64,000 bases of DNA, from positions 2,238,001 to 2,302,000 of the forward strand of contig NZ_CP019427.1 in the NCBI RefSeq assembly GCF_009834545.1, read 5' to 3'. The notes below the pieces were generated by a model. That model did not search any database and was not told the DNA's origin. It was given only the letters and a program-made list of their open reading frames with translations. Source of the DNA: Pseudomonas sp. S04 (GTDB lineage: Bacteria > Pseudomonadota > Gammaproteobacteria > Pseudomonadales > Pseudomonadaceae). Position numbers and translations under genes: made by a program. Of this stretch, positions 26,223 through 33,755 are shown piece by piece; within the stretch, counting starts at the first letter, position 1, and each line of letters opens with the position of its first letter.

Positions 26223-27137
26223 TCAGTTAACTATTCTTATTTTGGGTTTCTGAGCTTTAGAGGGGTCGGGAGGGGGCGTGCTTTCCTCCAGGCCTGGGCG
26301 AACAATCAATGGCTCACTGTTCTGTGCAGAACCGCACTGCTGGATCTCTTTGGAGCGACGAACCAGGAAGTCGACCAGGTGATTTCGAATCCGGTAGAAC
26401 TGAGGGTCATGATGGATAGTCTCTCGGCTACGCTCGCGCGGTAGCGTATTGATGACTATCTCTGCGACCTTGGCGTGAGGGCCGTTGCTCATCAGCATGA
26501 TCTTGTCGGCCAGCAGGATGGACTCGTCTACATCGTGGGTGATCATGAAGACGGTCTGTTTTGTTGCCCCGCAGATCTTCAACAGTTCATCCTGAATCAC
26601 CCCTCGGGTCAGCGCGTCCAACGCGCCGAAAGGTTCATCCATCAACAACATTTTAGGTTCGACGGAAAATGCTCTGGCGATGCCTACACGCTGCTTCATG
26701 CCGCCAGAGAGTTCACTGGGTTTCTTTTTCGCAGCGGATTTAAGCCCGACAAGATCAAGGAATTTCGCTGCATGCTCCAGGACTTGTTTGCGGTTCCATT
26801 CGGGATGGCGAGAGCGAACGGCGAAGGCGATGTTGTCCTCCACGGTCAACCAAGGGAGGAGCGCATGGCTCTGGAACACTACGCCTCGATCAAGGCTGGG
26901 GCCTGAAATCTCTTTCCCTCCCATGATTACACCGCCGCTGGTGGCTTCTTCCAGGCCGGCAATGACATTGAGAATGGTGCTCTTGCCGCAGCCGGAATGC
27001 CCGATGATGCAGACAAATTCGCCCTTCTGAATGCCGAAATTGATGTTCTCGAATACCGGAGGCAGATCGGCACGATATTGCTTGGTCAGGCCTTCGACCT
27101 TAATGAAAGGCGCGTTACTGGATTCATTATTCAGCAT
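26223..27137 (-). CDS. NitT-family ABC transporter ATP-binding protein
   Basis: Cytoplasmic ATPase of a nitrate/sulfonate/cyanate-type importer. 304 residues with Walker A GHSGCGKST, signature LSGGMKQRVGIARA, Walker B MLLMDEP and the H-loop MITHDVDES. A tail of about 50 residues rich in Pro and Lys follows the nucleotide-binding domain, longer than usual. Start at 27137 overlaps the permease gene by 11 bp. Relatives named NrtD, CmpD and CynD carry nitrate, bicarbonate or cyanate, so the substrate is probably a small anion. Confidence 0.9.
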   Translation of the reverse strand: MLNNESSNAPFIKVEGLTKQYRADLPPVFENINFGIQKGEFVCIIGHSGCGKSTILNVIAGLEEATSGGVIMGGKEISGPSLDRGVVFQSHALLPWLTVEDNIAFAVRSRHPEWNRKQVLEHAAKFLDLVGLKSAAKKKPSELSGGMKQRVGIARAFSVEPKMLLMDEPFGALDALTRGVIQDELLKICGATKQTVFMITHDVDESILLADKIMLMSNGPHAKVAEIVINTLPRERSRETIHHDPQFYRIRNHLVDFLVRRSKEIQQCGSAQNSEPLIVRPGLEESTPPPDPSKAQKPKIRIVN

Positions 27138-27981
27138 AAGTGACCTTCCTTTGCAGGCGAGCAAACATGAGATCAAGGAGCATGCCGATCACACCAATCA
27201 TTAAAACGGCGAAGATGACGTTGCCCAGTGAAAGGTTGTTCCATTGATTCCAGACGAAATAGCCAATCCCTGTCCCACCGATCAGCATTTCCGCAGCGAC
27301 GATAACCAGCCAGGCGATACCCATGGAAATGCGCATGCCGGTGATGATCGTCGGCGCTGCGGCAGGGAGGATCACCAGAAAGGCTTTGCGCAGCGGGCTC
27401 ACCTCAAGCACACGGGCGACGTTGAGCCAGTCCCTTCTTACACCTGCCACGCCGAATGCGGTATTGATCAGCATCGGCCAGACCGAACAGATGAAAATGA
27501 CAAAAATCGCTGACGTGGTCGAATCCTTGATGGTGTAAAGCGCAATCGGCATCCAGGCCAGTGGTGAAATGGGCTTGAGCACCTGGATGAATGGATCCAG
27601 GGCGCGATACAGCAATGGCGACATTCCAATGAGGAATCCCAGAGGTATCGCTACCAGAGCGGCGAGGAAATAACCTGCACCAACACGTGCGAGCGAGTAC
27701 GCCAACTGGATGCCGATCCCCTTGTCATTGGGCCCGCGATCATAGAAAGGGTCGCTCAGGTTTTTGTAAGCCAGCGCGGCAAACTGAGCGGGTGTCGGAA
27801 CGCCATTTGCGCTGCTCGAAGCGCCATCTGCAGACTTGCCCATCAGCATCGCGTATTCAGCGTCGTGCGCGATCTTCAGGTCTTGCTTGTTGGGCTGAGT
27901 TGCAAACTGCCACACCATCATCATGAACAGCAATATGCACACTGACAGCATTGCTGCCTTCAACTTGATTGTCGATTTCAT
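27127..27981 (-). CDS. NitT-family ABC transporter permease
   Basis: Inner-membrane permease of 284 residues: one N-terminal membrane segment, a periplasmic-looking loop of about 70 residues, then the BPD_transp_1 domain with the EAA loop EVSPLRKAFLVILPAAAPTIITG (about residues 200-220). The long first loop is the NrtB/CmpB layout. It lies 9 bp after the binding-protein gene and overlaps the ATPase gene, so the three form one transporter. Confidence 0.9.
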   Translation of the reverse strand: MKSTIKLKAAMLSVCILLFMMMVWQFATQPNKQDLKIAHDAEYAMLMGKSADGASSSANGVPTPAQFAALAYKNLSDPFYDRGPNDKGIGIQLAYSLARVGAGYFLAALVAIPLGFLIGMSPLLYRALDPFIQVLKPISPLAWMPIALYTIKDSTTSAIFVIFICSVWPMLINTAFGVAGVRRDWLNVARVLEVSPLRKAFLVILPAAAPTIITGMRISMGIAWLVIVAAEMLIGGTGIGYFVWNQWNNLSLGNVIFAVLMIGVIGMLLDLMFARLQRKVTYAE

Positions 27982-27990
27982 AATCGCTCC

Positions 27991-32105: not shown

Positions 32106-32126
32106 AATGTAAGCATTGTTAACATT
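32106..32126. promoter_or_regulatory. Inverted repeat, candidate activator site 2
   Basis: AATGT (32106-32110) and ACATT (32122-32126) with an 11-bp centre, about 104 bp upstream of the -24 element: the usual distance for a sigma-54 enhancer. Confidence 0.5.
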
Positions 32127-32144
32127 CTGTTGTTTTTTAATGGG

Positions 32145-33755
32145 CTACTCCAGGCCCATTTTCTTGATGCGGTAATTGAATTGACGAGAGGTCAATCCAA
32201 GGAGCTGGGCCGCCCTGGATTTATTACCGCCTGCCTGGGCCAAGGCCCTGGTAAGCGTTTCGGCGGAATGTGACTCAGCCGATACGTAGGGTCGAATGGC
32301 ATAACTGAAAGGAATCGCTGGCTCGCGAGCGTACTCGGGTGTTGATCGTCCACCTGAAAGCGCCAGATTCTCTTCTGTGCTGGCGCTGAAAAATGGTTTC
32401 AAGTCTTCAGCACTCATCGACGATTTTTGCGCCAGAAGAACGATTCTCTCAATCATGTTCGAGAGCTCACGGATGTTGCCGGGCCAGTGGTGATCTTCCA
32501 GCAACTGGATGGCATCAGCCTTCAGGTTGATGTTGCGCTGATTGACCTGGTTGACCTTGTTCAAGAAGTGCATGGCCAGAACAGGGATATCGCTGCGCCG
32601 ACTTGCAAGGGATGGAAGATGGATAGGGATCACGTTCAGGCGGTAGTAGAGGTCCTGCCTGAACTGGCCGCGGCCGACTTCGGTCGCAAGATCACGGTTG
32701 GTCGCGGCGACCAGTCGAACGTTGATTTTGATCTCGGATTTCCCGCCAAGCCGGGTGATGATGCCCTCCTGCAATGTTCGCAGTAGTTTGGTCTGCATCT
32801 GCAGTGGCATCTCGCCGATTTCGTCCAGAAATATGGTGCCGTCATTGGCTTGCTCGAACCAACCCGCACGCATCGCTGCGGCTCCAGTAAAGGCACCTTT
32901 TTCGTGGCCGAACAATTCAGACTCGAAGAGACTTTCAGGGATGGCGGCGCAGTTGACCTTGATGAAGGGCTTGTCACGTCGTGGGCTGGCCAAATGCAGG
33001 GCCCTGGCAAAAAGCTCCTTTCCTGTACCTGATTCACCAAGCAGCAGGACACTGGCCGTTGCGTCAGAGACACGCTCCAGCTCAGAAATCGCACGTAGCA
33101 ATTCGGGAGCGTTTCCGACAATGCCGTAGCGAGTGGCGTCCGCATGAAGCGCTTTGGTCAGCAGATCGTTCTGCATGGAAAGTGCGCGGGTTTTTTCTTC
33201 AATGTAGCTTTGCAAATGCAGTGATTGCCCCACCAGTGTCGTGAGGATACGAAGAATAGTGATGTCGTCAGCGAGCGGTCTGGATCTCAGGCGGATTCGA
33301 TGGCAGGCGAGGGCACCGACAGTTTTATGGCCTATCAAGACCGGTAGAGCGAGGAAGGCAACCTGTCCCTCAGGCAGATTTTCCCTGGCCACCACACGAC
33401 CCAGAAATACAGGATCGTTGTCGATATCCTGGACAATGATCATTTGTCCGGTCGCCAGCACTCGACCTGTAATGCCTTCATTAAAGGCGTACTTCCCACG
33501 ACTCATTTCATCCCGGGTGAGGCCGTACGCATGTTTGATGCTGCCCGATCTTTCCCCTTCATTGATGAGCACGATGCGGCCACGGTTCAACCCCAAAAGC
33601 TGGGAAAGCAAATGCAGGACCTCCTTGAAAACCAGTTCGGGGCTGAAGTTTTTGCCAGCAATGGCCATCACCTGCTGAAGCAACAACATCTCTTGGGCGC
33701 GCCAATAAGCCGGAGTCTCGCCACTGCCCGCTTCACTTTTCACATCGTCTGCCAT
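32145..33755 (-). CDS. Sigma-54-dependent activator with GAF domain (NifA-like)
   Basis: Enhancer-binding protein of 536 residues. N-terminal GAF sensor domain (about 40-185), AAA+ domain with Walker A GESGTGKE, the sigma-54 contact loop GAFTGA, Walker B GTIFLDEIG and an arginine-finger region, then a C-terminal Fis-type HTH (NKSRAAQLLGLTSRQFNYRIKK). This is the NifA/VnfA-like layout; GAF domains often bind small molecules or sense metals. Start at 33755 (MADDV) follows GGGAGA. It lies directly upstream of the sigma-54 operon on the same strand and almost certainly activates it. Confidence 0.93.
   Translation of the reverse strand: MADDVKSEAGSGETPAYWRAQEMLLLQQVMAIAGKNFSPELVFKEVLHLLSQLLGLNRGRIVLINEGERSGSIKHAYGLTRDEMSRGKYAFNEGITGRVLATGQMIIVQDIDNDPVFLGRVVARENLPEGQVAFLALPVLIGHKTVGALACHRIRLRSRPLADDITILRILTTLVGQSLHLQSYIEEKTRALSMQNDLLTKALHADATRYGIVGNAPELLRAISELERVSDATASVLLLGESGTGKELFARALHLASPRRDKPFIKVNCAAIPESLFESELFGHEKGAFTGAAAMRAGWFEQANDGTIFLDEIGEMPLQMQTKLLRTLQEGIITRLGGKSEIKINVRLVAATNRDLATEVGRGQFRQDLYYRLNVIPIHLPSLASRRSDIPVLAMHFLNKVNQVNQRNINLKADAIQLLEDHHWPGNIRELSNMIERIVLLAQKSSMSAEDLKPFFSASTEENLALSGGRSTPEYAREPAIPFSYAIRPYVSAESHSAETLTRALAQAGGNKSRAAQLLGLTSRQFNYRIKKMGLE

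What the first reader, a model, noticed from the sequence alone, without database searches (positions are those of the whole stretch)
26223..33755. Undescribed sigma-54 operon: ACAD-like flavoprotein, rubredoxin-reductase fusion, NitT importer
Five overlapping genes under a textbook -24/-12 promoter (GG and GC 12 bp apart) with a NifA-like GAF activator gene directly upstream. A rubredoxin fused to its reductase next to an ACAD-fold protein implies NAD(P)H-driven oxidation or reduction of a small substrate brought in by a nitrate/cyanate/sulfonate-type importer with Tat-exported binding protein. I know no named pathway with this set. Candidates: nitro compounds, sulfones/sulfonates, cyanate or thiocyanate.
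Basis: partly seen in the sequence, partly recalled or inferred. Interest (0 to 1): 0.88.

Follow-up and report, generated by a model that had tools for sequence, protein, structure and literature searches.

The report
Probable thiocyanate-to-cyanate utilisation gene cluster
A set of bacterial genes that pairs an unstudied flavin enzyme with an anion importer, a cyanate-destroying enzyme and sulfur-handling enzymes most likely lets the cell take up thiocyanate, a toxic pollutant, and use its nitrogen and sulfur, which would give a so far unnamed enzyme a job that can be tested.

Summary
The operon is real, but larger than reported. Besides regulator, ACAD-like flavoprotein, rubredoxin-reductase and NitT importer it includes TauE and an ETHE1-type dioxygenase (24428-26124). 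A second unit, osmC-cynS (22523-21506), has its own -24/-12 site and a similar upstream motif. The missing clue is cynS: cyanase. In 80 relatives OsmC lies directly before ACAD in 77 and ACAD before the reductase in 79. In 299 proteobacterial genomes cynS is in 11 of 13 with such an ACAD and 35 of 286 without. Around the homologous binding protein, sulfur genes (ETHE1/TauE/rhodanese) occur in 14 of 15 loci with the ACAD and 0 of 23 without. A divergent form (OsmC-ACAD-rhodanese) lies beside cynABDS in six loci. A distant form (AhpD-like-ACAD-ABC) matches P. aeruginosa PA2331-PA2327, of which PA2328-PA2331 are reported as cyanide-induced. Best reading: thiocyanate import, flavin/rubredoxin oxidation to cyanate plus sulfane sulfur, then cyanase and persulfide dioxygenase; confidence 0.57. 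Cyanide oxidation or another S-N compound are the main rivals. No listed paper joined this set with thiocyanate or cyanate. The substrate is inferred, not shown.

The parts
32145..33800 (-). sigma-54-dependent activator (GAF-AAA+-Fis HTH)
   Evidence: in 59 of 80 related loci; clade separate from 8 cynF-type activators of the same family
32108..32124 (.). upstream motif TGTTAACAATGCTTACA (TGT-N11-ACA), probable activator site
31987..32002 (-). -24/-12 promoter of the main operon
31841..31945 (-). 34-codon open frame between promoter and ACAD; its stop overlaps the GTG start of the ACAD gene
   Evidence: read by eye; function unknown
30711..31844 (-). ACAD-fold flavoprotein, proposed thiocyanate-oxidising enzyme
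29380..30753 (-). rubredoxin fused to rubredoxin reductase
   Evidence: four rubredoxin Cys invariant in 78 of 78
27991..29376 (-). NrtA/CynA-type binding protein with Tat signal and N-terminal CxCGxH motif
27127..27981 (-). ABC permease
26223..27176 (-). ABC ATPase
25303..26124 (-). TauE/SafE-type exporter, proposed sulfite export
   Evidence: 19 of 80 related loci
24428..25291 (-). ETHE1/SdoA-type persulfide dioxygenase (ORF open to 25459; start by homology)
   Evidence: 30 of 80 related loci
22683..22699 (.). upstream motif TGTAAACAATGTCAACA, second copy
22582..22597 (-). -24/-12 promoter of osmC-cynS
21981..22523 (-). OsmC-family protein with one conserved Cys (86)
21506..21955 (-). cyanase CynS
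   Evidence: 226.9 bits, cut-off 150; the only PF02560 match in the genome

Best explanation
The genes form a pathway for using thiocyanate (SCN-) as nitrogen and sulfur source. The ABC system imports SCN-. NAD(P)H reduces rubredoxin through its fused reductase; rubredoxin reduces the flavin of the ACAD-fold enzyme, which with O2 oxidises the sulfur of SCN-. The single Cys of OsmC takes the sulfur, leaving cyanate. Cyanase turns cyanate into NH3 and CO2. ETHE1 oxidises the sulfane sulfur, passed on via a low-molecular thiol, to sulfite, and TauE exports it. The sigma-54 activator switches on both units through a similar upstream motif. Shown: gene content, order, conservation, promoter and motif statistics. 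Inferred: substrate, direction of electron flow, O2 use, the OsmC sulfur relay, sulfite export and which activator binds the motif.
For: Cyanase in the cluster. Of 80 relatives, 43 have cynS in the locus and 33 of the other 37 have it elsewhere in the genome. In 299 genomes 11 of 13 with the ACAD (E 1e-50 or better) have cynS against 35 of 286 without, p 2e-8 uncorrected for kinship. Sulfur genes near the binding protein in 14 of 15 loci with ACAD, 0 of 23 without. A divergent form with rhodanese instead of the reductase lies next to cynABDS in six loci. Methylorubrum thiocyanatum holds the cluster (L060) and a cyanase elsewhere; [quoted passage not shown] PA2328-PA2331 of P. aeruginosa, which match the distant form in gene order, are reported as HCN-induced (PMC10687435). 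Both window promoters carry -24/-12 sites and a 17-bp motif of one pattern. Weak matches to flavin monooxygenases of the fold: HsaA model, XiaF, 2rfq.
Against: No experiment. 37 of 80 loci lack cynS in the stretch, and 15 hold only OsmC-ACAD-reductase among the scanned genes (14 MAG contigs and one short Roseomonas contig). In 13 of the loci a protein of the sulfolactate/ureidoglycolate dehydrogenase type (266.7 bits, cut-off 500) occurs, directly before OsmC in 11 layouts, which would fit another substrate there. The importer's closest characterised kin carries cyanate, so it may import cyanate. Cyanase is not a reliable mark of a thiocyanate pathway (PMC6504805, PMC5328954). 19 of 43 loci with cynS show no sulfur gene. 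2 of 13 genomes with the ACAD lack cynS. Neisseria gonorrhoeae has AhpD-like protein and ACAD without importer or cyanase found in the 15-kb stretch. Other Methylorubrum species have the cluster and I know no thiocyanate phenotype for them.
Confidence: 0.57

Rival explanations
1. Cyanide oxidation: the ACAD-fold enzyme is a cyanide monooxygenase (HCN to cyanate); cyanase finishes the job; rhodanese and ETHE1 deal with sulfur used in parallel cyanide detoxification.
For: Same cyanase link; HCN induction of PA2328-PA2331, which match the distant form.
Against: HCN should need no ABC importer; sulfur genes accompany the ACAD closely; HCN induction also fits thiocyanate made from cyanide.
Confidence: 0.15
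2. Another sulfur-nitrogen compound is the substrate (organic thiocyanate, isothiocyanate, selenocyanate or similar) that gives cyanate and sulfane sulfur or selenium; the substrate may differ between lineages.
For: Gene logic is the same; a dehydrogenase-type gene stands with OsmC-ACAD-reductase in 13 loci; the OsmC matches an NCBIfam (seleno)protein domain model under its cut-off (57.5 of 95 bits).
Against: The importer is of the small-anion NrtA/CynA type; the dehydrogenase-type neighbour is confined to a subset without importer and activator.
Confidence: 0.16
3. Cyanate assimilation operon with unrelated redox or stress genes (OsmC, ACAD, rubredoxin) carried along.
For: The ABC-CynS part is homologous to cynABDS, which is known for cyanate use.
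Against: OsmC-ACAD and ACAD-reductase adjacency kept in 77 and 79 of 80 loci, also without cynABDS; the divergent form pairs with cynABDS too.
Confidence: 0.06
4. Defence against hypothiocyanite or peroxides: OsmC or AhpD-like partner plus flavoenzyme reduce oxidised thiols, with cyanase clearing the cyanate by-product.
For: Partner is OsmC or an AhpD-like CMD protein; forms present in Neisseria, Moraxella and P. aeruginosa.
Against: OsmC lacks the second Cys of peroxidases; importer and cyanase fit nutrition better; a 2026 paper on P. aeruginosa and hypothiocyanous acid does not name PA2327, PA2328, PA2330 or PA2331 (term search only).
Confidence: 0.06

Closest known systems
cynFABDS cyanate operon of Pseudomonas pseudoalcaligenes CECT5344 (PMC6627978, passages read)
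   Same: NrtABD-type ABC importer with cyanase, sigma-54 promoter and activator
   Different: OsmC, acyl-CoA and rubredoxin are not mentioned in that paper (term search); cynF is divergent; here the activator is on the same strand and in a separate clade, and TGT-N11-ACA is not enriched before the binding-protein gene of cyn loci without ACAD (1 seen, 1.3 expected in 23 loci)
Thiocyanate dehydrogenase (TcDH) of Thioalkalivibrio (PMC5328954, PMC6504805, passages read)
   Same: thiocyanate to cyanate plus elemental sulfur
   Different: copper enzyme, thiocyanate:cytochrome c oxidoreductase; here an ACAD-fold flavoprotein with rubredoxin
Thiocyanate hydrolase, the carbonyl sulfide route (PMC5328954, passage)
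   Same: thiocyanate degradation
   Different: hydrolysis to COS and ammonia; no cyanate
Flavin monooxygenases with ACAD fold (HsaA, XiaF; DszC recalled)
   Same: ACAD fold; weak matches to HsaA and XiaF; DszC oxygenates sulfur (recalled)
   Different: they take reduced flavin from a flavin reductase (recalled); no SfnB model and no DszC structure appeared among the matches listed
Rubredoxin reductase 2v3a (organism, P. aeruginosa, recalled)
   Same: reductase half, 172 bits
   Different: here fused to rubredoxin and placed with the ACAD
P. aeruginosa PA2331-PA2327
   Same: ACAD of the same superfamily plus NitT-type ABC; PA2328-PA2331 HCN-induced
   Different: AhpD-like CMD instead of OsmC (inferred from order), no reductase or cyanase found in the stretches of the same form, about 32% identity, other transporter type

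Membership tests
cynABDS-type cyanate operon | cyanase gene cynS | tested here: met
   both cyanase models over cut-off; here in a second unit, while in 27 of 80 relatives it follows the ATPase gene directly
cynABDS-type cyanate operon | NrtABD-type ABC importer homologous to CynABD | tested here: met
   binding protein 54-56% to nine others of the family that stand beside cynS without ACAD
cynABDS-type cyanate operon | divergent CynF activator | tested here: not met
   activator on the same strand and in a separate, distant clade (long branches flagged)
cynABDS-type cyanate operon | induction by cyanate, repression by ammonium | not testable with these tools
   needs reporter or RT-PCR
acyl-CoA dehydrogenase | ACAD fold | tested here: met
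   AlphaFold model pLDDT 78, top 50 hits nearly all ACADs, query TM 0.70-0.80
acyl-CoA dehydrogenase | catalytic Glu (in YEGT motif of short-chain ACADs, recalled) | tested here: inconclusive
   alignment stops two residues before; continued by counting, the site is Thr357, Thr in 32 of 32 sequences of the superfamily
thiocyanate dehydrogenase | copper enzyme related to 5F75 | not tested
   no TcDH search was made; the ACAD profile matched no such chain at E 0.001
OsmC/Ohr thiol peroxidase | two redox cysteines | tested here: not met
   Cys86 in 79 of 79 rows; second site is Ser162 (SPV where 9wo1 has CPV)
ETHE1/SdoA persulfide dioxygenase | metal-binding HxHxDH and further His/Asp | tested here: met
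   conserved in 26 aligned rows; 4efz 311 bits, 4ysk 300 bits, mitochondrial ETHE1 4chl 57 bits; that 4ysk is a persulfide dioxygenase is recalled; activity not testable
rubredoxin | two CxxC iron-binding motifs | tested here: met
   Cys26, 29, 59, 62 in 78 of 78; Pfam 74.9 bits
sigma-54 promoter | GG and GC 12 bp apart, with an activator gene nearby | tested here: met
   two sites; 52 of 71 related loci examined have a best site reached by at most 2 of 200 shuffles; RpoN dependence not testable

The most novel reading that the evidence does not exclude
A third biochemical route of thiocyanate breakdown: a rubredoxin-fed ACAD-fold flavoenzyme oxygenates SCN- to hypothiocyanite, and a one-cysteine OsmC partner turns it into cyanate plus a protein persulfide. 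Forms with an AhpD-like partner, including PA2331-PA2330 of P. aeruginosa, recycle thiocyanate made from the cell's own cyanide.
Probability: 0.35. Interest if true: 0.85.

Novelty: new variant of a known kind. Interest (0 to 1): 0.72.

Why it matters
Heterotrophs of several genera grow on thiocyanate as nitrogen source (PMC5328954, passage), and in the passages and listings that I saw no enzyme was named for it outside the sulfur lithotrophs. A conserved, testable gene set in pseudomonads, Burkholderiales, marine Gammaproteobacteria and methylobacteria would fill that gap, give marker genes for treatment of cyanide-mining waste, replace a misleading acyl-CoA dehydrogenase annotation in many genomes, and offer a role for the cyanide-induced, quorum-regulated PA2327-PA2331 genes.

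Tried and rejected
Sulfonate or sulfone desulfurisation (SfnB, DszC, Ssu): no match of the ACAD to an SfnB model or DszC structure among those listed; a weak match to 3-sulfinopropanoyl-CoA desulfinase (31.6 bits, cut-off 600) is of the size of other ACADs. Nitrate transport: permease and ATPase pass nitrate cut-offs, but the cyanate systems are of the same family and I saw no nitrate reductase among the genes examined. CynF orthology of the activator: at first assumed (57-59% for the best local match); one search gives about 38-45% for the same family genomes and the tree places eight cynF-type proteins far away, so I dropped it. N-terminal CxCGxH of the binding protein as a mark of this cluster: also in 6 of 23 loci without ACAD, so dropped. 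Motif TGTWAACAATGYYWACA was made from the two window sites, so its count there proves nothing by itself; the support is (28 TGT-N11-ACA against 5.4 expected, 21 of 71 loci; other spacings 2 to 14 against about 5; 13 hits genome-wide with up to 1 mismatch, both strands counted, against 3 for the reversed pattern; exact only at the two promoters). My first gene calls mixed antisense frames and were replaced. Association counts: L189 counts as without ACAD although its genome has one about 12 kb away; the genomes of L198, L199 and L208 have one on another contig; sulfur-gene references came from ACAD loci, which favours finding them there; kinship is not corrected. The genome test includes the window's own genome; without it 10 of 12 against 35 of 286. 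Searches list the same handles, so I take them as one draw. On checking I found the dehydrogenase-type neighbour in 13 loci under-reported; I lowered the thiocyanate reading from 0.60 to 0.57 and raised the other-compound rival from 0.13 to 0.16 for it.
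Full report
What is there. The window lies in a 6.1-Mb single-contig genome (not named to me, but the closest named proteins are from Pseudomonas). The unit continues into TauE and an ETHE1-type dioxygenase. Beyond a MetY gene on the + strand is a second - strand unit, osmC-cynS; cynS passes both cyanase models and is the only cyanate-lyase match of the genome.

Control. A -24/-12 site with correct spacing precedes ACAD (0 of 2000 shuffles as good) and another precedes osmC (4 of 2000). 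The two upstream regions hold TGTwAACAATGyywACA, 106 and 86 bp above the sites. Upstream of osmC in 71 of the 80 related loci (9 could not be used) TGT-N11-ACA occurs 28 times against 5.4 expected, in 21 loci, and 52 of 71 have a strong -24/-12 site. In the own genome the looser motif is exact only at the two promoters. In 23 cyn loci without ACAD it is not enriched. So one activator probably serves both units and differs from CynF, in agreement with the tree.

Conservation. One scan of genome contigs kept the 80 best of 517 relatives, itself capped. By tblastn, in these 80: OsmC 79, reductase 79, activator 59, permease 51, ATPase 49, cynS 43, binding protein 41, ETHE1 30, TauE 19, rhodanese 10; OsmC is next to ACAD in 77 and ACAD next to reductase in 79. 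Some loci are short contigs; of 47 with at least 7.5 kb on each side, 35 have cynS. Of the 37 loci without cynS, 33 genomes hold it elsewhere. Fifteen loci, 14 of them MAG contigs, show only OsmC-ACAD-reductase. In 13 loci a protein of the sulfolactate/ureidoglycolate dehydrogenase type occurs, so that subset may have another substrate. In an even draw of 299 proteobacterial genomes, 46 have cynS and 13 have an ACAD of this superfamily at E 1e-50 or better; 11 have both (Fisher p 2e-8, kinship not corrected). In the own genus the close form is rare, 3 of 298 genomes including the own. Plasmid copies occur in Marinobacter and Acetobacter with OsmC, and in Moraxella with an AhpD-like CMD protein in its place.

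Sulfur link. Loci were also drawn by the binding protein: all 16 further matching family genomes and 22 stretches from the 20 further matching phylum genomes (with stretches). Fifteen have an ACAD of this superfamily in the stretch, 23 do not. ETHE1, TauE or rhodanese is present in 14 of 15 and 0 of 23; caveats are under Tried and rejected.

Forms of the ACAD. Form A (about 56% identity and more) goes with the rubredoxin-reductase, nearly always with OsmC. Form B (about 40%) goes with OsmC and mostly rhodanese; six such loci adjoin cynABDS, three plasmid loci carry a different ABC importer. Other relatives of about 40% (L126-L128 and Neisseria) and form C (about 32%) go with a CMD protein; all of these that were looked at but Neisseria have an ABC importer beside it. 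A protein 94% identical to the form C protein of L118 is annotated in P. aeruginosa, in one record fused to CMD and in one to an ABC ATPase domain, in line with the order PA2331-PA2327. PA2328-PA2331 are reported as HCN-induced (PMC10687435, one section read, citing Frangipani 2014, which I did not see); PA2328-PA2330 fall in a mutant together with many sulfur genes (PMC8466066, passages); PA2330 and PA2331 are called core quorum-activated genes (PMC8863103, passage). That PA2331 is the CMD gene is my inference from gene order. Thirty-two sequences of the superfamily share W90, S126-N127, K130, E136, W157, R345-R346, E349 and T357-P358.

Mechanism. The model is ACAD fold (pLDDT 78, query TM 0.70-0.80 in the top 50 matches). 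The place of the acyl-CoA dehydrogenase base seems to be Thr357, by continuing the alignment by hand. OsmC keeps one Cys and has Ser at the second peroxidase site, which fits a thiol acceptor better than a peroxidase. A rubredoxin with intact iron site and its reductase would feed electrons. Known chemistry (recalled): hypothiocyanite reacts with thiols to sulfenyl thiocyanates, whose hydrolysis could give cyanate and persulfide. Cyanase, persulfide dioxygenase and a TauE exporter take the products. A molybdenum oxidoreductase gene of sulfite-dehydrogenase type and a cytochrome c gene at 8804-10679 could oxidise exported sulfite; this is a suggestion only.

Literature. Two thiocyanate routes are described, TcDH and thiocyanate hydrolase; Klebsiella, Sphingomonas, Ralstonia, Methylobacterium and Arthrobacter are listed as growing on thiocyanate as nitrogen source (PMC5328954, passages). 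M. thiocyanatum holds the cluster (L060) and a cyanase elsewhere. In the listings of searches I saw no paper that joins thiocyanate or cyanate with this gene set; two searches listed 20 of 27 and 20 of 31 papers, most were seen as listing only, and subscription papers and preprints are not covered.

Verdict. Observation confirmed and enlarged; interpretation partly supported. Thiocyanate utilisation is the best reading (0.57); another sulfur-nitrogen compound (0.16) and cyanide oxidation (0.15) are the main rivals.

Noticed in passing
8804-10679 (-): Molybdenum oxidoreductase of sulfite-dehydrogenase type and a cytochrome c gene; could oxidise exported sulfite.
   Followed up: partly
11249-11812 (-): TauE-type frame matching only positions 76-236 of the 237-position Pfam model, start GTG; perhaps a truncated second exporter.
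   Followed up: no
16356-19407 (+): Second OsmC-family gene amid TetR-type, DsbA/FrnE-type and thioredoxin-type frames (types other than OsmC by eye).
   Followed up: no
20398-20802 (-): AhpD-like CMD protein downstream of cynS; CMD replaces OsmC in other forms.
   Followed up: partly
34332-34817 (+): N-terminal piece of a Cys/Met-metabolism PLP enzyme running into a chemotaxis-like frame (the latter by eye); looks like a gene remnant.
   Followed up: no
31841-31945 (-): 34-codon frame between the -24/-12 site and ACAD, stop overlapping the ACAD start, where osmC stands in relatives (by eye).
   Followed up: no
27991-29376 (-): Binding protein has 64 residues before the twin arginines with a conserved CxCGxH (both Cys in 41 of 42 rows), also in 6 of 23 cyn loci without ACAD.
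   Followed up: partly
L014, L036, L053 and similar: Betaproteobacterial MAG loci (several titled Alcaligenaceae) keep only OsmC-ACAD-reductase of the scanned genes, often with a sulfolactate/ureidoglycolate dehydrogenase-type gene before it and a small protein weakly like an (R)-mandelonitrile lyase model after it.
   Followed up: partly
159-1820 and 59966-61762: Reverse-transcriptase/maturase-like frames, as in group II introns, near both ends of the window, and an IS66-like transposase frame at 61848-63500 (by eye).
   Followed up: no
H24, H25: Two Neisseria gonorrhoeae 'plasmid' records of 2.17 Mb in the plasmid collection look like chromosomes.
   Followed up: no
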